Source of the DNA: Diprion similis
Lineage: Eukaryota; Arthropoda; Insecta; Hymenoptera; Diprionidae
Reading direction: 5' to 3'
DNA: 64,000 bases
NCBI RefSeq assembly: GCF_021155765.1
Contig: NC_060113.1
Coordinates: forward strand, 346,501 to 410,500
Shown here: positions 6,839-36,658 of the stretch, one piece after another
How positions within the stretch are numbered: the first letter of the stretch is position 1
Layout of the letters: every line of letters begins with the position of its first letter
The notes under the pieces: model-generated
What the model was told of the DNA's origin: nothing
What the model saw: only the letters and a program-made list of their open reading frames with translations
The model's database searches: none
Made by a program: the position numbers and the translations under genes

Positions 6839-9319
6839 GTGGAGTCCACCGGATCGGATAATGAATTGACGTCGAGCGAAGGGTCCGTTAGTGTCACGGT
6901 CAGCAGCGGCGACGTCTTCCCCTCCATTATCCCCTTTGGCAATATGTGCACGACGCCTGGAAATGCAGGTGCCGGATTTGGTTACCCTTGGTCATTTGGT
7001 GGGCCAGGTACTGACGCCCGTGACAACGCTCAGAGTGATTTAACCACAAACATTAGCTACGCAGTAAACAATAATCAGGATCAGGGTTCGAGTCAAAAAA
7101 TTCAGGTCGACGTCAAGCCGGCTAAGTTGGCCAACAGTGCCCACCGTCGTCCGGTTTTTAATATGAATGAGAGTTGTCAACAGACTCCGACTACTCATCA
7201 CGGACACACAGGAGGAGCTCACAATCAAACTCACGGGGTTCACGCTCGTGCCAAGAAGCATCACGATGTCTTCTCGATAACCTGCGACAAAGGAGGTTGT
7301 AACTGTGACGCGTCCCACCCTACACCCCCCCCATCCCTATTCTCTAATCCTCTGGTATTTACCGCAGGCGACAAACACGCCATGAGTAAACATTTTATGA
7401 CCCCGATCGGACCGCTCCAGCTCACCGCTGAGGAGTGCAATGAGATCCTCATGAAGCGCGCCGCAGCAGCGTCCAACCAGGCCAACGCCAACAGTGTGGC
7501 GACGAGCCAGACGGACACGACGGCCCACCTTGGGCATGTCTTCACACACGTCAATACAGTGCAGATCGAGACCAAGGTCAAGCAGCAACAGGACATGGGG
7601 AGCCAGGTTCGGGTCCCCAAAGAACGGCCCTACTCATGCTCGGAGTGCGGCAAGTCATTCCTACTGAAGCATCATCTTACTACTCACGCCAGAGTTCATA
7701 CTGGGGAGAGACCCCACATTTGCCCCCACTGCGGCAAGAGCTTTGCTCACAAACACTGTTTACATACTCACCTTTTGCTGCACAGTTCCGAGCGACCTTA
7801 TCAGTGCCGGGAGTGCAAAAAGTCATTCACCCTGAAGCATCACTTGGTAACTCACACTCGTGTCCACACGAGAGAGCGACCCTTCGTATGCCAGGAGTGC
7901 GGTAGGGCATTTCCATTGAAACGCCACCTAGTTACCCACAGTAAATTTCACTCTGGAGAACGACCCTTTGTATGCGAAGAATGTGGCGAGTCATTTTCAC
8001 AGAAGGACCATCTCGTCATGCATTCACGTTTCCACGGCAGCTTGCATCCATTCGTTTGCCACGACTGTGGTGCCACCTTCCAGAGAAAGTTTGAGCTTGT
8101 CAATCATGGGCGGTTGCACGGCAGGGTACCACACTCATGTACCGTTTGCGGCAAAGAATTTCTTCAAAAACGTACTCTACTCGCCCACATGCGCCTGCAC
8201 ACTGGGGAGACTCCCTTTGCCTGCACTGTTTGCGGAGAGGCATTTCCGCGCAAAGCTGATTTGGTCGCTCACTCAAAGATACACAATAACAATACCAGTC
8301 CAGACGAGAAGCCCTTGACTTGCAGGTTTGTAAACATAATTTTACCATGTTAACTTTCCATTCAAAAGGTTCACACCAAAAAATAACTAACGCCATCCTG
8401 AGTGTCTTACTCAACAAATAAAAAATCGAAAGTTGAAGAGCTGCAAACACAACTACTTGGCATTAAAAAGAACGCAATTGTGAAAAGTGATGAAATATTT
8501 TCTAGGGAATGCGGATTGGATTTCCCAAATCGCGAAGCGCTAACTTTGCATTTAAGGCTGCATTCTGGCGACAGGACTCTGGTCACCGACCTGTGTGGGC
8601 TCGCAGCAGCTTTCCAGCAAACACCAGGTCACTTCCTAACGCCAAATACAACAGGGCCTCATCAGGTAAGCCTCGAATTTCCTCAGAATCAACATTCTGT
8701 CACATTAAAAATTAAGTATTTGCAGATGAATGGTCCCATCGGAACGCCGGGTGTTAGCCACATGCACGGGGCAACGCAGACATCTCCGCCAGTGGGTTCC
8801 GGCCCAAAACCGAAACCACATCTTTGTCCGGATTGTGGGCGCGGTTTTGCCCAGAAGCATGGGCTGTCACAGCATCAGCGCCGTCACACGGACGGTAGTT
8901 GCCACATCCGGTCCCACGTTTGCGACAAATGCGGCAAGGCGTTCTTCCAAAAGAACCACTTGTTGCTTCATCAACGTCAACACATGGATCCTCCACCCAG
9001 TCTGCTTCGTCAGCAGCAAAGGCAGGCAGCACAGGCTGCAGCGCAGCAGGCTCAGCAGCAGCAGCAACAACAGCAGCAGCAGCAGGTCCAGCAGCAACAG
9101 CAGCAGCAAGCTTGCACTGTGGACACGAAAGCAATACAGCTGCAAGCAATACAACAGCAAGTTCAGGTCCAGCAACAACAGCAGCAGCAGCAGCAACAGC
9201 AGCAACAACAACAACAGCAGCAGCAGCAACAGCAGCAGCAACAGCAGCAGCAACAACAACAGCAACAACAACCGTGCACCGTCGATACGAAAGCAATACA
9301 ATTGAACGTCACCATGTGA
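6839..9319 (+). CDS. C2H2 zinc-finger protein with 11 fingers and polyglutamine C-terminus
   Basis: Probable nuclear DNA-binding regulator; orthologue not identified. Three coding exons: 6839(or upstream)-8325, 8506-8665 and 8726-9319. Both introns are GT-AG, and the first one splits finger 9. Eleven C2H2 fingers follow an acidic, Ser/Thr-rich N-terminal region of about 230 residues: eight in tandem (about 7626-8283) with TGER/P-like linkers, a ninth across the splice, then after a spacer two more (about 8820-8985). The C-terminus holds two long Gln tracts and a repeated ten-residue motif beginning CTVDT. The start is unsettled. The frame is open from 6737 but its first ATG is at 6944 (711 aa). 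Either that ATG is used or an upstream exon splices in, for example at the acceptor-like CAG ending at 6836. Polyadenylation signals AATAAA lie at 9561 and 9790. Confidence 0.85.
9170..9271 (+). repeat. CAG/CAA polyglutamine tract
   Basis: About 34 consecutive Gln codons, a mix of CAG and CAA, in the last exon of the zinc-finger gene. A shorter interrupted Gln tract lies at about 9047-9110. The tract leaves several other frames open on both strands, which creates false ORFs. The mixed codons suggest an older tract under protein-level selection rather than a pure recent expansion. Confidence 0.9.
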
Positions 9320-16923: not shown

Positions 16924-17029
16924 AGTATTTGGCAAAAAATTATGAATATTATTTACTACTTGTTGAAGATTCCGATGTCCTGTATTTATATGGTCTAAAC
17001 GGTAAAAGTATGAGTTGACGTTTCAGTTA

Positions 17030-17221
17030 GTAAATCTTGATATTTTGCATGCCGACGTCTTTGATCTGACGAAGTGCGGAGTACAGGAATGGATCGCTAG
17101 CGGACGAATTCTTACAATTAAAGACGTGACGGCAATAAAAAAGGGACATTGATTCTGAGCGGTCCAGAGTCGCTTCAAGCAACAGACCTAATGTGACAGC
17201 CACAAGCCTGAAGATTTTCAT
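17030..17221. repeat. Diverged satellite monomer, left edge
   Basis: Aligning by eye to the 312-bp monomer shows clear but degraded similarity. Examples are GCAAC followed by a degraded segment and ACAGCC at about 17177-17203, CATTGATTCTGAGCGGTCC against the monomer's AAATCGATTAAGCGCAGTCC, and GTACAGGAATGGAT against CTACAATGGATTCT. The copy merges into near-consensus sequence at about 17222. The left edge of the array therefore decays rather than stopping sharply. The 64-codon minus-strand ORF here is a by-product. Confidence 0.7.
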
Positions 17222-19875
17222 CCTTATTTCTCTGCTGTTGGTCCGACGCTATTTTTAATGTTATTTCTAAGTTCCTGGGGGTCGAATTAATCTAGAAATG
17301 GTCATACCAATCGATTCCGAAAGTAAAAATTTTCGGCTCAGAAAATGAGCAAAAAAGTAAGGCTAACCCCTTTGGATTTTTGGCGAAAATTTCGACGATT
17401 CTAAAAAGTGCTACAATGGATTCTTTGAGGCACTATTCCGACGTAATTTTGCAAGAGAAATCGATCAAGCGCAGTCCCAATAGGCTGCGAGCAACGCATC
17501 AAAAGTTACAGCCAAAAAACCAAAAATTTTTGTCGTCATTTCTCGGCTGTTGGTCCGACGCTATTTTTGATGTTATTTCTGAGTTCCTGGGGGTCGAATT
17601 ACTCTAGAAATGGTCATACAAATCGATTCCGAGAGTAAAAATTTTCGGCTCCGAAAATGAGCAAAAAAGTAAGGCTAACCCCTTTGGATTTTTGGCGAAG
17701 ATTTCGACGATTCTGAAAAGTGCTACAATGGATTCTTTAGGGCACTATTCCGACGTAATTTTGCGAGAGAAATCGATTAAGCGCAGTCCCAATAGGCTGC
17801 GAGCAACGCATCAAAAGTTACAGCCAAAAAACCAAAAATTTTTGTCGTCATTTCTCTGCTGTTGGTCCGACGCTATTTTTAATGTTATTTCTGAGTTCCT
17901 GGGGGTCGAATTACTCCAGAAATGGTCATATAAATCGATTCCGAGAGTAAAAATTTTCGGCTCTGAAAATGAGCAAAAAAGTAAGGCTAACCCCTTTGGA
18001 TTTTTGGCGAAAATTTCGACGATTCCGAAAAGTGCTACAATGGATTCTTTAGAGCACTATTCCGACGTAATTTTGCGAGAGAAATCGATTAAGCGCAGTC
18101 CCAATAGGCTGCGAGCAACGCATCAAAAGTTACAGCCAAAAAACCAAAAATTTTTGTCGTCATTTCTCTGCTGTTGGTCCGACGCTATTTTTAATGTTAT
18201 TTCTGAGTTCCTGGGGGTGGAATTACTCTAGGAATGGTTATACAAATCGATTCCAAGAGTAAAAATTTTCGGCTCAGAAAATGAGCAAAAAAGTAAGGCT
18301 AACCCCTTTGGATTTTTGGCGAAAATTTCAACGATTCTGAAAAGTGCTACAATGGATTCTTTAGGGCACTATTCCGACGTATGTTTGCGAGAGAAATCGA
18401 TTAAGCGCAGTCCCAATAGGCTGCGAGCAACGCATCAAAAGTTACAGCCAAAAAACCAAAAATTTTTGTCGTCATTTCTCTGCTGTTGGTCCGACGCTAT
18501 TTTTCATGTTATTTCTGAGTTCCTGGGGGTCGAATTACTCTAGAAATGGTCATACAAATCGATTCCGAGAGTAAAAATTTTCGGCTCAGAAAATGAGCAA
18601 AAAAGTAAGGCTAACCCCTTTGGATTTTTGACGAAAATTTCGACGATTCTGAAAAGTGCTACAATGAATTCTTTAGGGCACTATTCCGACGTAATTTTGC
18701 GAGAGAAATCGATTAAGCGCAGTCCCAATAGGCTGCGAGCAACGCATCAAAAGTTACAGCCAAAAAACCAAAAATTTTTGTCGTCATTTCTCTGCTGTTG
18801 GTCCGACGCTATTTTTAATGTTATTTCTGAGTTCCTAGGGGTCGAATTACTCTAGAAATGGTCATAAAAATCGATTCCGAGAGTAAAAATTTTCGGCTCC
18901 GAAAATGAGCAAAAAAGTAAGGCTAACCCCTTTGGATTTTTGGCGAAAATTTCGACGATTCTGAAAAGTGCTACAATGGATTCTTGAGGGCACTATTCCG
19001 ACGTAATTTTGCGAGAGAAATCGATTAAGCGCAGTCCCAGTAGGCTGCGAGCAACGCATCAAAAGTTACAGCCAAAAAACCAAAAATTTTTGGCGTCATT
19101 TCTCTGCTGTTGGTCCGACGCTATTTTTAATGTTATTTCTGAGTTCCTGGGGGTCGAATTACTCTAGGAATGGTCATACAAATCGATTCCGAAAGTAAAA
19201 ATTTTCGGCTCAGAAAATGAGCAAAAAAGTAAGGCTAACCCCTTTGGATTTTTGGCGAAAATTTCGACGATTCTGGAAAGTGCTACAATGGATTCTTTAG
19301 GGCACTATTCCGACGTAATTTTGCGAGAGAAATCGATTAAGCGCAGTCCCAATAGGCTGCGAGCAACGCATCAAAAGTTACAGCCAAAAAACCAAAAATT
19401 TTTGTCGTCATTTTTCTGCTGTTGGTCCGACGCTATTTTTGATGTTATTTCTGAGTTCCTGGGGGTCGAATTACTCTAGAAATGGTCATACAAATCGATT
19501 CCGAGAGTAAAAATTTTCGGCTCAGAAAATGAGCAAAAAAGTAAGGCTAACCCCTTTGGATTTTTGGCGAAGATTTCGACGATTCTGAAAAGTGCTACAA
19601 TGGATTCTTTAGGGCACTATTCCGACGTAATTTTGCGAGAGAAATCGATTAAGCGCAGTCCCAATAGGCTGCGAACAACGCATCAAAAGTTACAGCCAAA
19701 AAACCAAAAATTTTTGTCGTCATTTCTCTGCTGTTGGTCCGACGCTATTTTTAATGTTATTTCTGAGTTCCTGGGGGTCGAATTACTCTAGAAATGGTCA
19801 TAAAAATCGATTCCGAGAGTAAAAATTTTCGGCTCAGAAAATGAGCAAAAAAGTAAGGCTAACCCCTTTGGATTT

Positions 19876-22683
19876 TTGGCGAAAATTTCGACGATTCTGA
19901 AAAGTGCTACAATGGATTCTTGAGGGCACTATTCCGACGTAATTTTGCGAGAGAAATCGATTAAGCGCAGTCCCAGTAGGCTGCGAGCAACGCATCAAAA
20001 GTTACAGCCAAAAAACCAAAAATTTTTGTCGTCATTTCTCTGCTGTTGGTCCGACGCTATTTTTAATGTTATTTCTGAGTTCCTGGGGGTCGAATTACTC
20101 CAGGAATGGTTATACAAATCGATTCCGAGAGTAAAAATTTTCGGCTCAGAAAATGAGCAAAAAAGTAAGGCTAACCCCTTTGGATTTTTGGCGAAAATTT
20201 CGACGATTCTGAAAAGTGCTACAATGGATTCTTTGGGGCACTATTCCGACGTAATTTCGCGAGAGAAATCGATTAAGCGCAGTCCCAATAGGCTGCGAGC
20301 AACGCATCAAAAGTTACAGCCAAAAAACCAAAAATTTTTGTCGTCATTTCTCTGCTGTTGGTCCGACGCTATTTTTCATGTTATTTCTGAGTTCCTGGGG
20401 GTCGAATTACTCTAGAAATGGTCATACAAATCGATTCCGAGAGTAAAAATTTTCGGCTCAGAAAATGAGCAAAAAAGTAAGGCTAACCCCTTTGGATTTT
20501 TGGCGAAAATTTCGACGATTTTGAAAAGTGCTACAATGGATTCTTTAGGGCACTATTCCGACGTAATTTTGCGAGGGAAATCGATTAAGCGCAGTCCCAG
20601 TAGGCTGCGAGCAACGCATCAAAAGTTACAGCCAAAAAACCAAAAATTTTTGTCGTCATTTCTCTGCTGTTGGTCCGACGCTATTTTTAATGTTATTTCT
20701 GAGTCTCTGGGGGTCGAATTACTCCAGGAATGGTTATACAAATCGATTCCGAGAGTAAAAATTTTCGGCTCAGAAAATGAGCAAAAAAGTAAGGCTAACC
20801 CCTTTGGATTTTTGGCGAAAATTTCGACGATTCTGAAAAGTGCTACAATGGATTCCTTAGGGCACTATTCCGACGTAATTTCGCGAGAGAAATCGATTAA
20901 GTGCAGTCCCAATAGGCTGCGAGCAACGCATCAAAAGTTACAGCCAAAAAACCAAAAATTTTTGTCGTCATTTCTCTGCTGTTGGTCCGACGCTATTTTT
21001 AATGTTATTTCTGAGTCTCTGGGGGTCGAATTACTCCAGGAATGGTTATACAAATCGATTCCGAGAGTAAAAATTTTCGGCTCAGAAAATGAGCAAAAAA
21101 GTAAGGCTAACCCCTTTGGATTTTTGGCGAAAATTTCGACGATTCTGAAAAGTGCTACAATGGATTCTTTAGGGCACTATTCCGACGTATGTTTGCGAGA
21201 GAAATCGATTAAGCGCAGTCCCAATAGGCTGCGAGCAACGCATCAAAAGTTACAGCCAAAAAACCAAAAATTTTTGTCGTCATTTCTCTGCTGTTGGTCC
21301 GACGCTATTTTTCATGTTATTTCTGAGTTCCTGGGGGTCGAATTACTCTAGAAATGGTCATACAAATCGATTCCGAGAGTAAAAATTTTCGGCTCGGAAA
21401 ATGAGCAAAAAAGTAAGGCTAACCCCTTTGGATTTTTGACGAAAATTTCGACGATTCTGAAAAGTGCTACAATGAATTCTTTAGGGCACTATTCCGACGT
21501 AATTTTGCGAGAGAAATCGATTAAGCGCAGTCCCAATAGGCTGCGAGCAACGCATCAAAAGTTACAGGCAAAAAACCAAAAATTTTTGTCGTCATTTCTC
21601 TGCTGTTGGTCCGACGCTATTTTTAATGTTATTTCTGAGTTCCTGGGGGTCGAATTACTCTAGAAATGGTCATAAAAATCGATTCCGAGAGTAAAAATTT
21701 TCGGCTCAGAAAATGAGCAAAAAAGTAAGGCTAACCCCTTTGGATTTTTGGCGAAAATTTCGACGATTCTGAAAAGTGCTACAATGGATTCTTGAGGGCA
21801 CTATTCCGACGTAATTTTGCGAGAGAAATCGATTAAGCGCAGTCCCAGTAGGCTGCGAGCAACGCATCAAAAGTTACAGCCAAAAAACCAAAAATTTTTG
21901 GCGTCATTTCTCTGCTGTTGGTCCGACGCTATTTTTAATGTTATTTCTGAGTTCCTGGGGGTCGAATTACTCTAGGAATGGTCATACAAATCGATTCCGA
22001 AAGTAAAAATTTCCGGCTCAGAAAATGAGCAAAAAAGTAAGGCTAACCCCTTTGGATTTTTGGCGAAACTTTCGACGATTCTGAAAAGTGCTACAATGGA
22101 TTCTTTAGGGCACTATTCCGACGTAATTTTGCGAGAGAAATCGATTAAGCGCAGTCCCAATAGGCTGCGAGAAACGCATCAAAAGTTACAGCCAAAAGAC
22201 CAAAAATTTTTGTCGTCATTTTTCTGCTGTTGGTCCGACGCTATTTTTGATGTTATTTCTGAGTTCCTGGGGGTCGAATTACTCGAGAAATGGTCATACA
22301 AATCGATTCCGAGAGTAAAAATTTTCGGCTCCGAAAATGAGCAAAAAAGTAAGGCTAACCCCTTTGGATTTTTGGCGAAGATTTCGACGATTCTGAAAAG
22401 TGCTACGATGGATTCTTTAGGGCACTATTCCGACGTAATTTTGCGAGAGAAATCGATTAAGCGCAGTCCCAATAGGCTGCGAGCAACGCATCAAAAGTTA
22501 CAGCCAAAAAACCAAAAATTTTTGTCGTCATTTCTCTGCTGTTGGTCCGACGCTATTTTTAATGTTATTTCTGAGTTCCTGGGGGTCGAATTACTCTAGA
22601 AATGGTCATAAAAATCGATTCCGAGAGTAAAAATTTTCGGCTCAGAAAATGAGCAAAAAAGTAAGGCTAACCCCTTTGGATTT
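19876..22683. repeat. Higher-order repeat unit, copy A (9 monomers, 2808 bp)
   Basis: Nine consecutive monomers whose private variants recur in the same order 2808 bp downstream. Shared marks include GAGTCTCTGG at 20701 and 21013, ACGTATGTTTGCG at about 21185, GACGAAAATTTCG with AATGAATT at about 21437-21478, TTACAGGCAAAAA at about 21565, and the AAACTTTCG/AAAAGACC monomer at 22060. Part of the same order is also visible one unit earlier (monomers at 18316, 18628, 19252 and 19564), so the unit has at least two full copies and one more diverged or partial copy. Confidence 0.85.
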
Positions 22684-25491
22684 TTGGCGAAAATTTCGAC
22701 GATTCTGAAAAGTGCTACAATGGATTCTTGAGGGCACTATTCCGACGTAATTTTGCGAGAGAAATCGATTAAGCGCAGTCCCAGTAGGCTGCGAGCAACG
22801 CATCAAAAGTTACAGCCAAAAAACCAAAAATTTTTGTCGTCATTTCTCTGCTGTTGGTCCGACGCTATTTTTAATGTTATTTCTGAGTTCCTGGGGGTCG
22901 AATTACTCCAGGAATGGTTATACAAATCGATTCCGAGAGTAAAAATTTTCGGCTCAGAAAATGAGCAAAAAAGTAAGGCTAACCCCTTTGGATTTTTGGC
23001 GAAAATTTCGACGATTCTGAAAAGTGCTACAATGGATTCTTTGGGGCACTATTCCGACGTAATTTCGCGAGAGAAATCGATTAAGTGCAGTCCCAATAGG
23101 CTGCGAGCAACGCATCAAAAGTTACAGCCAAAAAACCAAAAATTTTTGTCGTCATTTCTCTGCTGTTGGTCCGACGCTATTTTTCATGTTATTTCTGAGT
23201 TCCTGGGGGTCGAATTACTCTAGAAATGGTCATACAAATCGATTCCGAGAGTAAAAATTTTCGGCTCAGAAAATGAGCAAAAAAGTAAGGCTAACCCCTT
23301 TGGATTTTTGGCGAAAATTTCGACGATTTTGAAAAGTGCTACAATGGATTCTTTAGGGCACTATTCCGACGTAATTTTGCGAGGGAAATCGATTAAGCGC
23401 AGTCCCAGTAGGCTGCGAGCAACGCATCAAAAGTTACAGCCAAAAAACCAAAAATTTTTGTCGTCATTTCTCTGCTGTTGGTCCGACGCTATTTTTAATG
23501 TTATTTCTGAGTCTCTGGGGGTCGAATTACTCCAGGAATGGTTATACAAATCGATTCCGAGAGTAAAAATTTTCGGCTCAGAAAATGAGCAAAAAAGTAA
23601 GGCTAACCCCTTTGGATTTTTGGCGAAAATTTCGACGATTCTGAAAAGTGCTACAATGGATTCCTTAGGGCACTATTCCGACGTAATTTCGCGAGAGAAA
23701 TCGATTAAGTGCAGTCCCAATAGGCTGCGAGCAACGCATCAAAAGTTACAGCCAAAAAACCAAAAATTTTTGTCGTCATTTCTCTGCTGTTGGTCCGACG
23801 CTATTTTTAATGTTATTTCTGAGTCTCTGGGGGTCGAATTACTCCAGGAATGGTTATACAAATCGATTCCGAGAGTAAAAATTTTCGGCTCAGAAAATGA
23901 GCAAAAAAGTAAGGCTAACCCCTTTGGATTTTTGGCGAAAATTTCGACGATTCTGAAAAGTGCTACAATGGATTCTTTAGGGCACTATTCCGACGTATGT
24001 TTGCGAGAGAAATCGATTAAGCGCAGTCCCAATAGGCTGCGAGCAACGCATCAAAAGTTACAGCCAAAAAACCAAAAATTTTTGTCGTCATTTCTCTGCT
24101 GTTGGTCCGACGCTATTTTTCATGTTATTTCTGAGTTCCTGGGGGTCGAATTACTCTAGAAATGGTCATACAAATCGATTCCGAGAGTAAAAATTTTCGG
24201 CTCGGAAAATGAGCAAAAAAGTAAGGCTAACCCCTTTGGATTTTTGACGAAAATTTCGACGATTCTGAAAAGTGCTACAACGAATTCTTTAGGGCACTAT
24301 TCCGACGTAATTTTGCGAGAGAAATCGATTAGGCGCAGTCCCAATAGGCTGCGAGCAACGCATCAAAAGTTACAGGCAAAAAACCAAAAATTTTTGTCGT
24401 CATTTCTCTGCTGTTGGTCCGACGCTATTTTTAATGTTATTTCTGAGTTCCTGGGGGTCGAATTACTCTAGAAATGGTCATAAAAATCGATTCCGAGAGT
24501 AAAAATTTTCGGCTCAGAAAATGAGCAAAAAAGTAAGGCTAACCCCTTTGGATTTTTGGCGAAAATTTCGACGATTCTGAAAAGTACTACAATGGATTCT
24601 TGAGGGCACTATTCCGACGTAATTTTGCGAGAGAAATCGATTAAGCGCAGTCCCAGTAGGCTGCGAGCAACGCATCAAAAGTTACAGCCAAAAAACCAAA
24701 AATTTTTGGCGTCATTTCTCTGCTGTTGGTCCGACGCTATTTTTAATGTTATTTCTGAGTTCCTGGGGGTCGAATTACTCTAGGAATGGTCATACAAATC
24801 GATTCCGAAAGTAAAAATTTCCGGCTCAGAAAATGAGCAAAAAAGTAAGGCTAACCCCTTTGGATTTTTGGCGAAACTTTCGACGATTCTGAAAAGTGCT
24901 ACAATGGATTCTTTAGGGCACTATTCCGACGTAATTTTGCGAGAGAAATCGATTAAGCGCAGTCCCAATAGGCTGCGAGAAACGCATCAAAAGTTACAGC
25001 CAAAAGACCAAAAATTTTTGTCGTCATTTTTCTGCTGTTGGTCCGACGCTATTTTTGATGTTATTTCTGAGTTCCTGGGGGTCGAATTACTCGAGAAATG
25101 GTCATACAAATCGATTCCGAGAGTAAAAATTTTCGGCTCCGAAAATGAGCAAAAAAGTAAGGCTAACCCCTTTGGATTTTTGGCGAAGATTTCGACGATT
25201 CTGAAAAGTGCTACGATGGATTCTTTAGGGCACTATTCCGACGTAATTTTGCGAGAGAAATCGATTAAGCGCAGTCCCAATAGGCTGCGAGCAACGCATC
25301 AAAAGTTACAGCCAAAAAACCAAAAATTTTTGTCGTCATTTCTCTGCTGTTGGTCCGACGCTATTTTTAATGTTATTTCTGAGTTCCTGGGGGTCGAATT
25401 ACTCCAGAAATGGTCATATAAATCGATTCTGAGAGTAAAAATTTTCGGCTCAGAAAATGAGCAAAAAAGTAAGGCTAACCCCTTTGGATTT
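22684..25491. repeat. Higher-order repeat unit, copy B (9 monomers, 2808 bp)
   Basis: Near-identical copy of the preceding 2808-bp unit, with the same diagnostic variants at 23509, 23821, about 23993, about 24245-24286, about 24373 and 24868. Few differences were seen (for example AATGAATT becoming AACGAATT, and GATTAAGC becoming GATTAGGC, near 24.3 kb). This implies a recent tandem duplication of the whole nine-monomer block. Confidence 0.85.
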
Positions 25492-28400
25492 TTGGCGAAA
25501 ATTTCGACGATTCCGAAAAGTGCTACAATGGATTCTTTAGAGCACTATTCCGACGTAATTTTGCGAGAGAAATCGATTAGGCGCAGTCCCAATAGGCTGC
25601 GAGCAACGCATCAAAAGTTACAGCCAAAAAACCAAAAATTTTTGTCGTCATTTCTCTGCTGTTGGTCCGACGCTATTTTCCATGTTATTTCTGAGTTCCT
25701 GGGGGTCGAATTACTCTAGAAATGGTCATACAAATCGATTCCGAGAGTAAAAATTTTCGGCTCAGAAAATGAGCAAAAAAGTAAGGCTAACCCCTTTGGA
25801 TTTTTGGCGAAAATCTCGACGATTCTGAAAAGTGCTACAATGGATTCTTGAGGGCACTATTCCGACGTAATTTTGCGAGAGAAATCGATTAAGCGCAGTC
25901 CCAGTAGGCTGCGAGCAACGCATCAAAAGTTACAGCCAAAAAACCAAAAATTTTTGTCGTCATTTCTCTGCTGTTGGTCCGACGCTATTTTTAATGTTAT
26001 TTCTGAGTTCCTGGGGGTCGAATTACTCTAGGAATGGTCATACAAATCGATTCCGAAAGTAAAAATTTTCGGCTCAGAAAATGAGCAAAAAAGTAAGGCT
26101 AACCCCTTTGGATTTTTGGCGAAAATTTCGACGATTCTGAAAAGTGCTACAATGGATTCTTTAGGGCACTATTCCGACGTAATTTTGCGAGAGAAATCGA
26201 TTAAGCGCAGTCCCAATAGGCTGCGAGCAACGCATCAAAAGTTACAGCCAAAAAACCAAAAATTTTTGTCGTCATTTCTCTGCTGTTGGTCCGACGCTAT
26301 TTTTAATGTTATTTCTGAGTTCCAAGGGGTCGAATTACACCAGAAATGGTCATACAAATCGATTCCGAGAGTAAAAATTTTCGGCTCCGAAAATGAGCAA
26401 ATAAGTAAGGCTAACCCCTTTGGATTTTTGGCGAAAATTTCGACGATTCTGAAAAGTGCTACAATGGATTCTTGAGGGCACTATTCCGACGTAATTTTGC
26501 GAGAGAAATCGATTAAGCGCAGTCCCAGTAGGCTGCGAGCAACGCATCAAAAGTTACAGCCAAAAAACCAAAAATTTTTGGCGTCATTTCTCTGCTGTTG
26601 GTCCGACGCTATTTTTAATGTTATTTCTGAGTTCCTGGGGGTCGAATTACTCTAGGAATGGTCATACAAATCGATTCCGAAAGTAAAAATTTCCGGCTCA
26701 GAAAATGAGCAAAAAAGTAAGGCTAACCCCTTTGGATTTTTGGCGAAACTTTCGACGATTCTGAAAAGTGCTACAATGGATTCTTTAGGGCACTATTCCG
26801 ACGTAATTTTGCGAGAGAAATCGATTAAGCGCAGTCCCAATAGGCTGCGAGAAACGCATCAAAAGTTACAGCCAAAAGACCAAAAATTTTTGTCGTCATT
26901 TTTCTGCTGTTGGTCCGACGCTATTTTTGATGTTATTTCTGAGTTCCTGGGGGTCGAATTACTCGAGAAATGGTCATACAAATCGATTCCGAGAGTAAAA
27001 ATTTTCGGCTCCGAAAATGAGCAAAAAAGTAAGGCTAACCCCTTTGGATTTTTGGCGAAGATTTCGACGATTCTGAAAAGTGCTACGATGGATTCTTTAG
27101 GGCACTATTCCGACGTAATTTTGCGAGAGAAATCGATTAAGCGCAGTCCCAATAGGCTGCGAGCAACGCATCAAAAGTTACAGCCAAAAAACCAAAAATT
27201 TTTGTCGTCATTTCTCTGCTGTTGGTCCGACGCTATTTTTAATGTTATTTCTGAGTTCCTGGGGGTCGAATTACTCCAGAAATGGTCATATAAATCGATT
27301 CTGAGAGTAAAAATTTTCGGCTCAGAAAATGAGCAAAAAAGTAAGGCTAACCCCTTTGGATTTTTGGCGAAAATTTCGACGATTCCGAAAAGTGCTACAA
27401 TGGATTCTTTAGAGCACTATTCCGACGTAATTTTGCGAGAGAAATCGATTAGGCGCAGTCCCAATAGGCTGCGAGCAACGCATCAAAAGTTACAGCCAAA
27501 AAACCAAAAATTTTTGTCGTCATTTCTCTGCTGTTGGTCCGACGCTATTTTTAATGTTATTTCTGAGTTCCTGGGGGTCGAATTACTCTAGGAATGGTTA
27601 TACAAATCGATTCCGAGAGTAAAAATTTTCGGCTCAGAAAATGAGCAAAAAAGTAAGGCTAACCCCTTTGGATTTTTGGCGAAAATTTCGACGATTCTGA
27701 AAAGTGCTACAATGGATTCTTAAGGGCACTATTCCGACGTAATTTTGCGAGAGAAATCGATTAAGCGCAGTCCCAATAGGCTGCGAGCAACGCATCAAAA
27801 GTTACAGCCAAAAAACCAAAAATTTTTGTCGTCATTTCTCTGCTGTTGGTCCGACGCTATTTTCCATGTTATTTCTGAGTTCCTGGGGGTCGAATTACTC
27901 TAGAAATGGTCATACAAATCGATTCCGAGAGTAAAAATTTTCGGCTCAGAAAATGAGCAAAAAAGTAAGGCTAACCCCTTTGGATTTTTGGCGAAAATCT
28001 CGACGATTCTGAAAAGTGCTACAATGGATTCTTGAGGGCACTATTCCGACGTAATTTTGCGAGAGAAATCGATTAAGCGCAGTCCCAATAGGCTGCGAGA
28101 AACGCATCAAAAGTTACAGCCAAAAAACCAAAAATTTTTGTCGTCATTTTTCTGCTGTTGGTCCGACGCTATTTTTGATGTTATTTCTGAGTTCCTGGGG
28201 GTCGAATTACTCTAGAAATGGTCATACAAATCGATTCCGAGAGTAAAAATTTTCGGCTCCGAAAATGAGCAAAAAAGTAAGGCTAACCCCTTTGGATTTT
28301 TGGCGAAGATTTCGACGATTCCGAAAAGTGCTACAATGGATTCTTTAGGGCACTATTCCGACGTAATTTTGCGAGAGAAATCGATTAAGCGCAGTCCCAA

Positions 28401-31400
28401 TAGGCTGCGAGCAACGCATCAAAAGTTACAGCCAAAAAACCAAAAATTTTTGTCGTCATTTCTCTGCTGTTGGTCCGACGCTATTTTTAATGTTATTTCT
28501 GAGTTTCTGGGGGTCGATTTACTCCAGAAATGGTCATATAAATCGATTCTGAGAGTAAAAATTTTCGGCTCAGAAAATGAGCAAAAAAGTAAGGCTAACC
28601 CCTTTGGATTTTTGGCGAAAATTTCGACGATTCCGAAAAGTGCTACAATGGATTCTTTAGGGCACTATTCCGACGTAATTTTGCGAGAGAAATCGATTAA
28701 GCGCAGTCCCAATAGGCTGCGAGCAACGCATCAAGAGTTACAGCCAAAAAACCAAAAATTTTTGTCGTCATTTCTCTGCTGTTGGTCCGACGCTATTTTT
28801 AATGTTATTTCTGAGTTCCTGGGGGTCGAATTACACCAGAAATGGTCATACAAATCGATTCCGAGAGTAAAAATTTTCGGCTCCGAAAATGAGCAAAAAA
28901 GTAAGGCTAACCCCTTTGGATTTTTGGCGAAAATTTCGACGATTCTGAAAAGTGCTACAATGGATTCTTGAGGGCACTATTCCGACGTAATTTTGCGAGA
29001 GAAATCGATTAAGCGCAGTCCCAGTAGGCCGCAAGCAACGCATCAAAAGTTACAGCCAAAAAACCAAAAATTTTTGGCGTCATTTCTCTGCTGTTGGTCC
29101 GACGCTATTTTTGATGTTATTTCTGAGTTCCTGGGGGTCGAATTACTCTAGAAATGGTCATACAAATCGATTCCGAGAGTAAAAATTTTCGGCTCCGAAA
29201 ATGAGCAAAAAAGTAAGGCTAACCCCTTTGGATTTTTGGCGAAGATTTCGACGATTCTGAAAAGTGCTACAATGGATTCTTTAGGGCACTATTCCGACGT
29301 AATTTTGCGAGAGAAATCGATTAAGCGCAGTCCCAATAGGCTGCGAGCAACGCATCAAAAGTTACAGCCAAAAAACCAAAAATTTTTGTCGTCATTTCTC
29401 TGCTGTTGGTCCGACGCTATTTTTAATGTTATTTCTGAGTTCCTGGGGGTCGAATTACTCCAGAAATGGTCATATAAATCGATTCTGAGAGTAAAAATTT
29501 TCGGCTCAGAAAATGAGCAAAAAAGTAAGGCTAACCCCTTTGGATTTTTGGCGAAAATTTCGACGATTCCGAAAAGTGCTACAATGGATTCTTTAGAGCA
29601 CTATTCCGACGTAATTTAGCGAGAGAAATCGATTAAGCGCAGTCCCAATAGGCTGCGAGCAACGCATCAAAAGTTACAGCCAAAAAACCAAAAATTTTTG
29701 TCGTCATTTCTCTGCTGTTGGTCTGACGCTATTTTTAATGTTATTTCTGAGTTCCTGGGGGTCGAATTACTCTAGAAATGGTCATAAAAATCGATTCCGA
29801 GAGTAAAAATTTTCGGCTCAGAAAATGAGCAAAAAAGTAAGGCTAACCCCTTTGGATTTTTGGCGAAAATTTCGACGATTCTGAAAAGTGCTACAATGGA
29901 TTCTTGAGGGCACTATTCCGACGTAATTTTGCGAGAGAAATCGATTAAGCGCAGTCCCAGTAGGCTGCGAGCAACGCATCAAAAGTTACAGCCAAAAAAC
30001 CAAAAATTTTTGTCGTCATTTCTCTGCTGTTGGTCCGACGCTATTTTTAATGTTATTTCTGAGTTCCTGGGGGTCGAATTACTCTAGGAATGGTTATACA
30101 AATCGATTCCGAGAGTAAAAATTTTCGGCTCAGAAAATGAGCAAAAAAGTAAGGCTAACCCCTTTGGATTTTTGGCGAAAATTTCGACGATTCTGAAAAG
30201 TGCTACAATGGATTCTTTAGGGCACTATTCCGACGTAATTTTGCGAGAGAAATCGATTAAGCGCAGTCCCAATAGGCTGCGAGCAACGCATCAAAAGTTA
30301 CAGCCAAAAAACCAAAAATTTTTGTCATCATTTCTCTGCTGTTGGTCCGACGCTATTTTTCATGTTATTTCTGAGTTCCTGGGGGTCGAATTACTCTAGA
30401 AATGGTCATACAAATCGATTCCGAGAGTAAAAATTTTCGGCTCAGAAAATGAGCAAAAAAGTAAGGCTAACCCCTTTGGATTTTTGGCGAAAATCTCGAC
30501 GATTCTGAAAAGTGCTACAATGGATTCTTGAGGGCACTATTCCGACGTAATTTTGCGAGAGAAATCGATTAAGCGCAGTCCCAGTAGGCTGCGAGCAACG
30601 CATCAAAAGTTACAGCCAAAAAACCAAAAATTTTTGTCGTCATTTCTCTGCTGTTGGTCCGACGCTATTTTTAATGTTATTTCTGAGTTCCTGGGGGTCG
30701 AATTACTCTAGGAATGGTCATACAAATCGATTTCGAAAGTAAAAATTTTCGGCTCAGAAAATGAGCAAAAAAGTAAGGCTAACCCCTTTGGATTTTTGGC
30801 GAAAATTTCGACGATTCTGAAAAGTGCTACAATGGATTCTTTAGGGCACCATTTCGACGTAATTTTGCGAGAGAAATCGATTAAGCGCAGTCCCAATAGG
30901 CTGCGAGCAACGCATCAAAAGTTACAGCCAAAAAACCAAAAATTTTTGTCGTCATTTCTCTGCTGTTGGTCCGACGTAATTTTTAATGTTATTTCTGAGT
31001 TCCTGGGGGTCGAATTACTCTAGAAATGGTCATAAAAATCGATTCCGAGAGTAAAAATTTTCGGCTCAGAAAATGAGCAAAAAAGTAAGGCTAACCCCTT
31101 TGGATTTTTGGCGAAAATTTCGACGATTCTGAAAAGTGCTACAATGGATTCTTGAGGGCACTATTCCGACGTAATTTTGCGAGAGAAATCGATTAAGCGC
31201 AGTCCCAGTAGGCTGCGAGCAACGCATCAAAAGTTACAGCCAAAAAACCAAAAATTTTTGTCGTCATTTCTCTGCTGTTGGTCCGACGCTATTTTTCATG
31301 TTATTTCTGAGTTCCTGGGGGTCGAATTACTCTAGAAATGGTCATACAAATCGAATCCGAGAGTAAAAATTTTCGGCTCAGAAAATGAGCAAAAAAGTAT

Positions 31401-34060
31401 GGCTAACCCCTTTGGATTTTTGGCGAAAATCTCGACGATTCTGAAAAGTGCTACAATGGATTCTTGAGGGCACTATTCCGACGTAATTTTGCGAGAGAAA
31501 TCGATTAAGCGCAGTCCCAGTAGGCTGCGAGCAACGCATCAAAAGTTACAGCCAAAAAACCAAAAATTTTTGTCGTCATTTCTCTGCTGTTGGTCCGACG
31601 CTATTTTTAATGTTATTTCTGAGTTCCTGGGGGTCGAATGACTCTAGGAATGGTCATACAAATCGATTCCGAAAGTAAAAATTTTCGGCTCAGAAAATGA
31701 GCAAAAAAGTAAGGCTAACCCCTTTGGATTTTTGGCGAAAATTTCGACGATTCTGAAAAGTGCTACAATGGATTCTTTAGGGCACCATTTCGACGTAATT
31801 TTGCGAGAGAAATCGATTAAGCGCAGTCCCAATAGGCTGCGAGCAACGCATCAAAAGTTACAGCCAAAAAACCAAAAATTTTTGTCGTCATTTCTCTGCT
31901 GTTGGTCCGACGCTATTTTTAATGTTATTTCTGAGTTCCTGGGGGTCGAATTACTCTAGAAATGGTCATAAAAATCGATTCCGAGAGTAACAATTTTCGG
32001 CTCAGAAAATGAGCAAAAAAGTAAGGCTAACCCCTTTGGATTTTTGGCGAAAATTTCGACGATTCTGAAAAGTGCTACAATGGATTCTTGAGGGCACTAT
32101 TCCGACGTAATTTTGCGAGAGAAATCGATTAAGCGCAGTCCCAGTAGGCTGCGAGCAACGCATCAAAAGTTACAGCCAAAAAACCAAAAATTTTTGTCGT
32201 CATTTCTCTGCTGTTGGTCCGACGCTATTTTTAATGTTATTTCTGAGTTCCTGGGGGTCGAATTACTTTAGGAATGGTTATACAAATCGATCCCGAGAGT
32301 AAAAATTTTCGGCTCAGAAAATGAGCAAAAAAGTAAGGCTAACCCCTTTGGATTTTTGGCGAAAATTTCGACGATTCTGAAAAGTGCTACAATGGATTCT
32401 TTAGGGCACTATTCCGACGTAATTTTGCGAGAGAAATCGATTAAGCGCAGTCCCAATAGGCTGCGAGCAACGCATCAAAAGTTACAGCCAAAAAACCAAA
32501 AATTTTTGTCGTCATTTCTCTGCTGTTGGTCCGACGCTATTTTTCATGTTATTTCTGAGTTCCTGGGGGTCGAATTACTCTAGAAATGGTCATACAAATC
32601 GATTCCGAGAGTAAAAATTTTCGGCTCAGAAAATGAGCAAAAAAGTAAGGCTAACCCCTTTGGATTTTTGGCGAAAATTTCGACGATTCTGAAAAGTGCT
32701 ACAATGGATTCTTGAGGGCACCATTCCGACGTAATTTTGCGAGAGAAATCGATTAAGCGCAGTCCCAGTAGGCTGCGAGCAACGCATCAAAAGTTACAGC
32801 CAAAAAACCAAAAATTTTTGTCGTCATTTCTCTGCTGTTGGTCCGACGCTATTTTTAATGTTATTTCTGAGTTCCTGGGGGTCGAATTACTCTAGGAATG
32901 GTCATACAAATCGATTCCGAAAGTAAAAATTTTCGGCTCAGAAAATGAGCAAAAAAGTAAGGCTAACCCCTATGGATTATTGGCGAAAATTTCGACGATT
33001 CTGAAAAGTGCTACAATGGATTCTTTAGGGCACTATTTCGACGTAATTTTGCGAGAGAAATCGATTAAGCGCAGTCCCAATAGGCTGCGAGCAACGCATC
33101 AAAAGTTACAGCCAAAAAACCAAAAATTTTTGTCGTCATTTCTCTGCTGTTGGTCCGACGCTATTTTTAATGTTATTTCTGAGTTCCTGGGGGTCGAATT
33201 ACCCCAGAAATGGTCATACAAATCGATTCCGAGAGTAAAAATTTTCGGCTCCGAAAATGAGCAAAAAAGTAAGGCTAACCCCTTTGGATTTTTGGCGAAA
33301 ATTTCGACGATTCTGAAAAGTGCTACAATGGATTCTTTAGGGCACTATTCCGACGTAATTTTGCGAGAGAAATCGATTAAGCGCAGTCCCAATAGGCTGC
33401 GAGCAACGCATCAAAAGTTACAGCCAAAAAACCAAAAATTTTTGTCGTCATTTCTCTGCTGTTGGTCCGACGCTATTTTTAACGTTATTTCTGAGTTCCT
33501 GGGGGTCGAATTACACCAGAAATGGTCATACAAATCGATTCCGAGAGTAAAAATTTTCGGCTCCGAAAATGAGCAAAAAAGTAAGGCTAACCCCTTTGGA
33601 TTTTTGGCGAAAATTTCGACGATTCTGAAAAGTGCTACAATGGATTCTTTAGGGCACTATTCCGACGTAATTTTGCGAGAGAAATCGATTAAGCGCAGTC
33701 CCAATAGGCTGCGAGCAACGCATCAAAAGTTACAGCCAAAAAACCAAAAATTTTTGTCGTCATTTCTCTGCTGTTGGTCCGACGCTATTTTTGATGTTAT
33801 TTCTGAGTTCCAGGGGGTCGAATTACTCTCGAAATGGTCATACAAATCGATTCCGAGAGTAAAAATTTTCGGCTCCGAAAATGAGCAAAAAAGTAAGGCT
33901 AACCCCTTTGGATTTTTGGCGAAAATTTCGACGATTCTGAAAAGTGCTACAATGGATTCTTTAAGGCACTATTCCGACGTAATTTTGCGAGAGAAATCGA
34001 ATAAGCGCAGTCCCAATAGGCTGCGAGCAACGCATCAAAAGTTACAGCCAAAAAACGAAA

Positions 34061-34365
34061 GACATATCTTCTCAATTTTTCTGCTGCTGGTCTTTGCGTC
34101 GCAATTTCTCTGCTGTTCGTCCTACGCTTTTTTGCTCATGTTTTCTGAGTTCCTGGGTGTCCAATTAATCAAGCAAGGGTCATACAAATGGATTCCGAGT
34201 CGAAAAAGTATCGGCTCCGAAAATCACGAATAACCTAAGGCTAATCCCTAAGCATTTCTGTTGAAAATTACTTCGACCTGGGATAATGCTGAATTCAATT
34301 GATGATGCACTGTATCTCTATTATTTTGCGAGAGAAATATATTTTGCGCAATTCTGACTAGCTTG
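34061..34365. repeat. Diverged satellite monomer, right edge
   Basis: Sequence leaves the consensus after AGCCAAAAAACG at about 34060. It stays recognisable (CTGTTCGTCCTACGC, GAGTTCCTGGGTGTCC, GGGTCATACAAATGGATTCCGAG, TATTTTGCGAGAGAAAT) but carries many substitutions and short indels, including a duplicated CTGCTG segment. This is one decaying copy at the array border. Confidence 0.8.
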
Positions 34366-35715
34366 TGATCATCGCAACATTAGATATTGAAAGACATGAA
34401 ATCCTTCGAGGGTGTTAAAAGAGGTCGAGACGAAAAACCACCAATCTAATGCTACAAATTTATAGTTCGTAGTTCAGATTCAGAAGTTTATTCAACATGT
34501 CCTCATTTTAGTACAATTGTTCAAGTGTCAGTGTGTAGTAAATAATCTCATAAATTACCAAATAGTATTAAAGCTAAACACAAACAGTAATGCGAAAACA
34601 TCATTGAACATTACACTAGTTATTGGATTGTCATAAGGGGGAACAGAATTGCAATTTGCATCATCCCAAGCAGAATATGAAAAATATTATATTAGTTAGC
34701 TGTTATCGTAGTTTTGTAAGTATAGTTTAAGTTCCACACCTCTGTAAGACTCGATATATCATGTTTGATATTGTATTGTCACTATTTCATGCAACCCGCA
34801 TTGAAATAACCAAGTAAAGAAATAACCAGCTGCGCATTTTTTTCGTATTTCTTCAACTGTTCGTCCTACGATCTGCGGAATCCCGTTTTTCGCAATCCCG
34901 AGAGTCCAGGTAGTCCAGAAAGGGTCGTCTGAATTGATCCTGAAACAAATCGTTTTTTACTCAAGAAATTACAAAAAAAAAGAAGGATTTTTTCAGTTCA
35001 AATTGTTATGGGTTATAATAGTGCTAGAATTAATTCTTTGATGCACTTTATCGACGTAATTTTGGAAAAGGAATCGAATGCGCGTAGTCCGAATCCAATG
35101 CGAGCAGCAGATCAAAAGTTACAGTCGAAAAAACGAAAAATTTCTCTGCACGCTCTCAGCTGGTGGTTACGGCTTAGCATTTTTGCAGTCAAAATTTCAA
35201 TGACTTCAAATAATGCTCGAATTTATTCATTGATGTCCTACTGCAAACTGATTTTCCGCAACGAAACGAATGCGCGCCGCCCACAGTCAATGCGAACAGA
35301 AGATCAAAAGTTGAAGCTGAAAAACGTTTTTTTCGTAATTTTTTATCTGTTGGTACTACCATGTTTGAAATGCCGTTTCTCAATTCATTGGGGTTTTACT
35401 AGCCTAAAAAAGATCGCAAAAAACGTGAGGTACACATACTGATTATTACTGCTATATGAACTGCTATGATTCCAATTATTTCTAGGATAGGTTAGGTAAA
35501 GTTAGTTGGGTCCAAAGCCCGATAGGTCTGCTAACATAAGACCGCTTATCCCTGTCAGGCACGTTTCTACCAATCTACCCATAATTTTACGGGCCACCCA
35601 TGAGATCACATTGTTAACTAAGGTTAAGCTACTGCACCAAACATAGCCTAGAAATTACTCGGAAAGACGAGCAGTAGAGGCTCCTACGCTTCGACCATTA
35701 CGGCTTGCAGATAGA
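34366..35715. other. Intergenic DNA with old satellite relics
   Basis: 34366-34840 shows nothing recognisable. About 34840-35400 contains at least two further, strongly diverged monomer relics: segments such as GATGCACTTTATCGACGTAATTTTGG, with CGTAGTCCGAATCCAATGCGAGCAGCAGATCAAAAGTTACAG just after, match the monomer order. No gene was found. About 35400-35715 is the probable promoter and 5' UTR side of Rrp40, with a TAGGTTAGGT motif but no clear core promoter. Confidence 0.55.
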
Positions 35716-36658
35716 ATGGAAGTAAATATTAAGGATGTTGTGGTTCCTGGCGATATTGCGGTAGAAATAATGAAAACAAGTGAAAAGGAACGAGTAGTCC
35801 TTGGTCCCGGACTGCGCCGTGACTGTGACCGTGTCCTAGTCACCAAAGCTGGTGTACTGAAGAGGCGAAAACCAGCTATATTTTATGTGGATAGCTATCA
35901 GAAAAGGTTAATATTATGAAGTTTCCTATGAACCTTTTAAACTGAGCAATAACGCAAGATGACCGAGCTGATGCATGTTTATCAAATCATTTGATTAATA
36001 AATAATATTCGAGCCTGATTCAAGAATTTCCTTCTCGTGCTTTTTCTTGATTGTTGTTACTTTTTGCTTTGTTAGGGGTATCTCTTTAGATGCATTCCAG
36101 GAGAAAAGGTTTATAACAATTTATTCATTTTAATACAGGTACGTCCCAAACAGAGGGGAGAATGTCGTTGGAATAGTGACGCAGAAGGCTGGGGACATAT
36201 ACAGAGTTGACATTGGGGGAGGGGAATTGGCGTCTCTATCTTACTTAGCTTTCGAAGGAGCAACAAAAAAGAATCGTCCTGACATTGTCGTAGGTGACGT
36301 GATTTTTGCAAAGCTATTGGTGGCCAGCAAAGGCATGGAACCGGAGCTGATATGCGTCGATTCTCATGGGAAGAAGGGCAAGTTAGGTGTCTTGAGTCCA
36401 GATGGGATGCTGTTTGATTGCTCCCTGAGTTTGGCAAGGAAATTGCTTCACCCAAGTTGTCAGCTGCTCACATTGCTTGCCAAAGAACAGGCCTATGAAA
36501 TCGCCATAGGTATGAATGGTAAAATCTGGATGAAGGCCAGATCGGTCCATGAGACAATAGCAGCTTGCAATGCTATTTTAGCTGCAGAAAACACCCCACC
36601 AGAAGAAATGCCAGCCTTGTGTTCGAGTATCGCGCGTAATTTACTTCGAATAAGCTAG
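35716..36658 (+). CDS. Rrp40: Exosome complex component RRP40 (EXOSC3)
   Basis: Cap subunit of the eukaryotic RNA exosome, the 3'-5' RNA decay and processing complex of nucleus and cytoplasm; it binds RNA over the channel entrance. Two exons, 35716-35906 and 36139-36658, join in frame across a GT-AG intron to give 236 residues. An N-terminal domain is followed by an S1 domain (about 65-150) and a C-terminal KH domain (about 155-236). The family-specific GMNG segment is at residues 188-191, inside EIAIGMNGKIWMKA. The start ATG is the first in frame and gives the usual N-terminus with VVVPGD and VLGPGLRRD. The length is slightly below the human protein (275), mainly at the N-terminus. AATAAA at 36735 lies 77 bases after the stop. 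Confidence 0.96.

What the first reader, a model, noticed from the sequence alone, without database searches (positions are those of the whole stretch)
17222..34060. 54-monomer satellite with perfect 312-bp register and no net indel
Landmarks recur at exact multiples of 312 from 17380 to 33916 (53 periods), while substitutions between monomers are common. Ordinary drift produces indels as well as substitutions, so the register implies strong recent homogenisation or a constraint on length, for example two-nucleosome phasing (about 2 x 156). The array sits between single-copy genes rather than in obvious heterochromatin, and its name and family are not known to me.
Basis: partly seen in the sequence, partly recalled or inferred. 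Interest (0 to 1): 0.75.

Follow-up and report, generated by a model that had tools for sequence, protein, structure and literature searches.

The report
Strict-register insect satellite DNA array
A 17-kilobase block of 54 near-identical 312-letter repeats is one of many related blocks spread over the chromosomes of what is probably an insect genome; inside the blocks letters change freely but insertions and deletions are nearly absent, which the rates measured elsewhere in this genome do not explain.

Summary
Window 17226-34060 is 54 monomers of exactly 312 bp with 83-100 distinct substitutions (two ways of cutting) and no indel. It is one array of a large satellite family in a 269-Mb genome: a 31-mer matches 12,699 places with up to 3 mismatches, reversed control 0. 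The family has 312-bp and 341/342-bp classes, alternating in two fetched arrays.

Strict register is family-wide. Over 20 monomer sets (460 monomers) I count 1477 distinct substitutions and 16 small indels (0.011). Outside arrays the ratio is 0.127 for decayed monomers, 0.120 for a dispersed transposon-like element and 0.065 for a short dispersed repeat. Homogenisation alone would remove both kinds of change alike. Some 1-bp variants survive and were copied on; no coding signal was found. I favour in-register recombinational repair; length selection is not excluded.

The parts
17226..34060 (+). satellite array, 54 monomers of 312 bp, no indel
   Evidence: TRF; monomer cut and consensus; block duplications
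17141..17225 (+). decayed monomer sequence at the 5' edge
   Evidence: sensitive BLAST with array consensuses marks satellite-like sequence from 17141
34061..34402 (+). diverged monomer of the 341/342-bp type at the 3' edge
   Evidence: best BLAST matches of 34060-35460, 78-86% over about 200-290 bp, include 342-bp arrays on C11 and C10; satellite-like to 34402
34434..34808 (.). element X: non-satellite segment beside many arrays, at one phase of the monomer; conserved 33-bp core at 34509-34541; invariant TTTATT (antisense AATAAA) at 34487-34492. Ends are approximate.
34829..35425 (+). strongly decayed monomers beyond X (about 67-70% to the best consensus)
35716..36658 (+). RRP40 (exosome) gene next to the array; start codon read by eye, last exon 36134-36658
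   Evidence: Pfam PF21262 and PF15985; sequence

Best explanation
The block is one array of a large dispersed satellite family with 312-bp and 341/342-bp classes. Shown: the window array grew by whole-monomer block duplications (6, 9 and 15 monomers), other arrays have 654-bp or 937-bp multi-monomer periods, and inside arrays substitutions are common while indels, above all those of 2 bp or more, are nearly absent. Inferred: breaks inside an array are mended from an identical neighbouring or sister monomer, in register, so they change copy number by whole monomers or leave substitutions but rarely leave end-joining scars; outside the array the same sequence lacks that template and collects indels at the normal rate. 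Replication-slip 1-bp variants still arise, are reduced less, and can be spread by block duplication. Inferred: arrays descend from old satellite-X loci spread over the chromosomes long ago, since X copies are mostly only about 60-75% alike while 312-class array consensuses differ by about 10%.
For: Arrays: 16 distinct small indels against 1477 distinct substitutions. Controls: decayed edge monomers, 160 indels of up to 8 bp per 1264 substitutions (Fisher p=2.6e-34); dispersed transposon-like element at 7.5% divergence, 20 per 166 in four comparisons (p=4e-11); short dispersed repeat, 78 per 1206 over pairs, 10 per 187 against the window copy; X pairs, 1219 per 9341. A substitution-only simulation gives 21 per 2287, so alignment error does not create the controls. 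Depletion is size-dependent: 1-bp 0.0081 inside against 0.036 and 0.042 outside, 2 bp or more 0.0027 against 0.118 and 0.078. Singletons are depleted too: 9 indels (hand count) to 508 substitutions, which fits a low input of indels better than slow selection. Block duplications. 1-bp variants multiplied: one deletion in four monomers of L017, one insertion in six of L021; L021 also has a 937-bp period.
Against: No repair or population data exist here; the pathway is inferred from the pattern. 1-bp indels are also depleted 4- to 5-fold, which avoidance of end joining alone does not explain. Duplicated X-containing segments show an intermediate ratio (7 gaps per 100 and 11 per 187 substitutions), so the contrast is graded; X within them shows few gaps (0 per 20, 1 per 50 mismatches). 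The short dispersed repeat gives only 0.053-0.065. Alignment at 28% divergence is uncertain and saturates substitutions. Array consensus pairs show almost no gaps (4 per 3375 summed over pairs), which length selection would also predict. Singletons against multi-copy variants gave no significant trend (p=0.17).
Confidence: 0.5

Rival explanations
1. Monomer length is under selection, for example because a chromatin or kinetochore protein or nucleosome pairs need a fixed spacing; indel variants arise normally and are removed.
For: Very few length changes between 312-class array consensuses (4 pairwise gaps to 3375 substitutions). Two stable classes, 312 and 341/342. In L013 a 313 and a 311 monomer eight steps apart cancel out. 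Some columns vary less than chance: 36 columns without within-array variants, 10.6 expected, neighbouring columns correlated.
Against: 1-bp length variants were multiplied in L017 and L021; two lengths 30 bp apart both persist, even alternating; no 10-bp dinucleotide periodicity in the window consensus (p=0.43; of four consensuses tested only L019 reached p=0.03, with its peak at 11.4 bp); singletons are already depleted; one monomer among thousands can hardly be seen by selection.
Confidence: 0.28
2. Recent homogenisation alone: the array is young, so nothing has had time to happen.
For: High identity (mean pairwise 96.9%) and block duplications.
Against: 83-100 distinct substitutions are present; at control ratios 5-13 indels should be there. 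Arrays about 10% apart still match almost without gaps.
Confidence: 0.05
3. The array is the internal tandem part of a mobile element (Helitron-like or other) of which X is a part, so each array is an insertion.
For: X sits beside arrays at one monomer phase at many loci; Helitrons with central tandem repeats are described (PMC10048060, passages read).
Against: The ten 5' flanks compared (430-4800 bp each) match one another only in the last few hundred bases, where decayed monomers lie; X has satellite on its far side too in 15 of 17 loci, so it is not an end; no shared terminus or transposase was seen; 2 of 9 arrays with a readable 3' flank show no X.
Confidence: 0.1
4. The repeat encodes protein; 312 = 104 codons and one frame is nearly open.
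For: One + strand frame has 0-2 stops in all 15 consensuses of 312-bp monomer sets, against 1-8 in the other two forward frames and 1-7 in the reverse frames.
Against: Variants are not concentrated at third codon positions (333-384 per position within arrays, 45-55 between arrays); 12 of 16 indels are 1 bp; only 56 of 347 monomers lack a stop in that frame. Only two Pfam hits below their curated cut-offs.
Confidence: 0.02
5. Assembly artefact: collapsed or over-corrected array.
For: None found here; raw reads are not available.
Against: 45 distinct monomers among 54, arrays of both classes on several contigs, length variants present in other arrays. Error correction would hardly remove indels from satellites only and spare substitutions (inference).
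Confidence: 0.05

Closest known systems
Satellite DNAs dispersed in euchromatin, as in Tribolium castaneum (PMC10048060, passages; PMC3411249 and PMC5844308, listing and abstract starts only)
   Same: Tandem repeats outside heterochromatin, often near genes; monomer lengths near one or two nucleosomes (recalled for Tribolium).
   Different: Here arrays of about 6 to over 40 kb, two length classes differing by one 30-bp block, a measured indel deficit, and the X segment.
PpSat1 of Phytophthora parasitica (PMC7290008, passages read)
   Different: There PpSat1 is said to evolve mainly via indels, so a low indel content is not general for satellites.
Helitron-borne tandem repeats, e.g. Crassostrea gigas (PMC10048060, passages)
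   Same: Dispersed tandem arrays with a companion non-repeat segment.
   Different: No transposon ends found; X is inside satellite sequence.
Tyba arrays of holocentric Rhynchospora (PMC10048060 passage; array sizes recalled)
   Same: Arrays scattered along chromosomes.
   Different: X-marked loci are placed at random (interval CV 1.08); no centromere data.
Alpha satellite higher-order repeats (recalled)
   Same: Multi-monomer units, dimers.
   Different: No centromere localisation shown; no sequence relation tested.

Membership tests
satellite DNA | long head-to-tail arrays of one unit | tested here: met
satellite DNA | many copies in the genome | tested here: met
   12,699 pattern places, reversed control 0
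satellite DNA | concerted evolution (arrays more alike inside than between) | tested here: met
   within-set mean identity 92.4-97.9%; 312-class consensuses 10.3% apart on average
satellite DNA | non-coding | tested here: met
   no codon-position bias; no Rfam match in the stretches searched
Helitron-borne tandem repeat | defined element ends or transposase flanking the array | tested here: not met
   ten 5' flanks share only satellite-like ends; X lies inside satellite sequence; Helitron termini were not searched for by motif
repeat-based (holo)centromere unit | occupied by CENH3 | not testable with these tools
   needs ChIP-seq
repeat-based (holo)centromere unit | regular spacing along chromosomes | tested here: not met
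   81 X loci: interval CV 1.08, relative positions compatible with uniform (KS p=0.83); X is a proxy for arrays and the list is incomplete
nucleosome-phasing repeat | 10-bp AA/TT periodicity or mapped phasing | tested here: inconclusive
   no excess in the window consensus; no MNase data

The most novel reading that the evidence does not exclude
The satellite-X loci are functional dispersed chromosomal units: X brings a conserved polyadenylation signal that stops transcripts running towards the array, and the array must keep exact monomer length to bind a spaced protein assembly, so that length rather than sequence is selected at 83 or more sites.
Probability: 0.07. Interest if true: 0.8.

Novelty: new member of a known kind. 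Interest (0 to 1): 0.42.

Why it matters
That satellite monomers keep their length is often remarked on and usually credited to homogenisation or nucleosomes (partly recalled; one case in PMC7290008). Here the same sequence can be compared inside and outside arrays in one genome, and the indel deficit is large, depends on indel size and is present in singletons. That turns a general remark into a testable question about how repeated DNA is repaired. X gives a single-copy anchor by which the loci could be tracked across species.

Tried and rejected
Coding: rejected on codon positions. Structured RNA: no Rfam match for the array start (17000-19500) or, at gathering cut-offs, the window; in four X loci only two below-threshold miRNA-like hits in a neighbouring inverted repeat of L037; no consensus fold for X on either strand. 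Viral collection: one 21-mer, 0 exact matches. Conversion tracts between arrays: more than in all 20 permutations only in L012, L013 and L022 of 15 sets; L012 and L013 are parts of one array, which may explain those two. Subrepeats in the monomer: no match longer than 18 bp. 10-bp periodicity: none in the window consensus. Papers: searches (satellite DNA with parasitoid wasp and 312 bp; Diprion similis; sawfly; Neodiprion) listed 0, 0, 6 and 5 papers, none on this family judging by titles and abstract starts. Of papers I read only passages of PMC10048060 and PMC7290008. Species: 269 Mb and contig sizes that suggest 14 chromosomes made me think, from recall, of the pine sawfly Diprion similis; no tool tested it and I do not rely on it.

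Rows dropped. One search leaves out monomers more than 8 bp off 312 or 342 and sets of fewer than 7; one search shows them: a 342 in L010, a 605 in L014, a 119 and a 343 in L015, a 642 in L025, the 1077-bp step across X in the window, and all of L018 and L026. Counting the five from L010, L014, L015 and L025 as indels gives 21 per 1477. L009/L010, L012/L013 and L016/L017 are parts of the same arrays, so some variants count twice. The 508 singletons come from monomers of exactly 312 bp only. In one search X pairs leave out L039 and L020; edge monomers leave out L032, L040, L026 and loci too short (13 loci used). Pairwise control counts are not independent events. One search used 81 of the 83 X loci, typed by hand, leaving out two close partners.

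Full report
Observation. The array is as described: 17226-34060, 54 monomers of 312 bp, no indel. Substitutions are frequent (83 distinct variants in 53 monomers). Exact repeats of up to 1194 bp at lags of 6, 9 and 15 monomers show that blocks of monomers were duplicated. Decayed monomers continue past both edges.

Family. The window is G000:C9:346501-410500 of a 269,008,206-bp genome in 60 contigs. A 31-mer from the monomer, up to 3 mismatches, has 6825 + 5874 matches and none for the reversed pattern. At 312 bp each that would be about 4 Mb or 1.5% of the genome; decayed monomers may be among them, so this is a rough figure. The listings, which are capped, show repeated matches on C2, C3, C4, C6, C7, C8, C9, C10, C11 and C13. 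Most fetched arrays have period 312, three (L019, L023, L027) 341 or 342, and two (L024, L025) alternate both as a 654-bp unit. The classes differ by one 30-bp block; a pattern for that block matches 943 + 973 places. One array on C4 has matches from 19995947 to 20039315, about 43 kb if continuous.

Indels. In 20 monomer sets (460 monomers, including the window) I counted 1477 distinct substitutions and 16 distinct indels, 12 of them 1 bp. The consensuses of 312-class arrays, 10.3% apart, gave 4 gaps to 3375 substitutions summed over pairs. Controls in the same genome: decayed monomers beyond X in 13 loci, 194 gaps (160 of up to 8 bp) per 1264 substitutions; X pairs 1219 per 9341; a dispersed element with inverted ends, 20 per 166 in four comparisons; a short dispersed repeat, 78 per 1206 over pairs and 10 per 187 against the window copy. 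Substitution-only simulation: 21 per 2287. Results against a clean contrast: duplicated segments holding X gave 7 per 100 and 11 per 187, and the pieces around X itself only 0 per 20 and 1 per 50, too few to settle whether tandem copies of other sequence are spared too. A 191-bp array in L018 has sixteen units of exactly 191 bp and one of 171, with 25 distinct substitutions among the sixteen; only about 2-3 indels would be expected there, so it does not tell.

What it means. Homogenisation alone removes both kinds of change, so it is not enough. Either indels arise less often in arrays or are removed. The deficit is stronger for 2 bp or more (about 29- to 44-fold) than for 1 bp (about 4- to 5-fold) and is present in singletons (9 per 508; the 9 is my hand count, the 508). 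Gap sizes at high divergence are uncertain. I favour in-register repair from neighbouring monomers, at about even odds. Length selection remains the main rival. Against a strict length rule, one 1-bp deletion stands in four monomers of L017 and one 1-bp insertion in six of L021.

Constraint on sequence. Pooled over 15 sets of 312-bp monomers (347 monomers), 36 columns have no within-array variant, 10.6 expected under even mutation, and neighbouring columns are correlated. This may reflect mutation rate or protein binding. Variants shared with other sets' consensuses exceed expectation in all 15 sets, from slightly (12 against 10.0) to about 2.7-fold (28 against 10.5); three pairs of sets are parts of one array, which inflates some of these.

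Element X. Beyond the 3' edge lies a segment of about 400 bp unlike the monomer (window about 34434-34808). Its 33-bp core has 62 matches with up to 3 mismatches, reversed control 0; BLAST, which scored 40 of 73 candidates, brings the union to 83 loci on 13 contigs. Of 19 loci examined the core was found in 17, with up to 9 mismatches allowed; all 17 have satellite sequence on at least one side (in L030 only weak matches near X), and 15 of 17 on the far (3') side, L020 being cut off there. The two without a core match, L018 and L033, still align to X over some hundred bases. X sits at one phase of the monomer, where the 312 and 342 classes differ (read by eye). Among nine arrays with a readable 3' flank, six have the core, L018 aligns to X at about 60%, and L011 and L021 show none. 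L024 and L026 were found through a query that held X; without them it is four of seven with the core, five of seven counting L018. In 15 of 15 aligned copies the motif TTTATT is invariant, that is AATAAA on the antisense strand, with a T/G-rich stretch beyond it. The motif lies outside the search pattern, though BLAST choice may favour it. A poly(A) signal facing the array is a reasonable but untested reading. In four loci (L009, L018, L020, L026) a 171/191-bp repeat stands next to this region. X loci look randomly placed along contigs.

Known or new. Dispersed satellites, length conservation and Helitron-borne arrays are all described (PMC10048060 and PMC7290008, passages only). I saw no paper on this family in the listings of searches, over an open-licence library only and with several listings capped. 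I file it as a new member of a known kind.

Noticed in passing
L037:2929-3853: Element with 179-bp inverted ends 96.6% identical and few copies (C14, C10, C13), containing a miRNA-like hairpin below the Rfam cut-off; looks like a recent non-autonomous DNA transposon.
   Followed up: partly
window 681-753: Short dispersed repeat with 39 other matches listed; copies begin with TTAACCCTTTGAG and hold a short palindrome; resembles piggyBac-type ends (recalled).
   Followed up: partly
L018:6528-10000: A second satellite of 171/191-bp units next to a short array of the main family.
   Followed up: partly
L041/L042 and L043/L044 (C2, 7-7.5 kb apart): Duplicated X-containing segments, 92.5% and 88.1% alike over about 1.6 kb, showing that X can be copied as part of a larger unit.
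   Followed up: partly
window 47054-47190 and 47668-47804: Inverted repeat pair, 137 bp, 79.6% identical.
   Followed up: no
L028, first 400 bases (start of contig C9): Long run of C and no TTAGG repeat at this contig start, while C1 begins with TTAGG repeats.
   Followed up: no
window 9026-9272: Long CAG/CAA repeat in a zinc-finger reading frame, coding a glutamine stretch.
   Followed up: no
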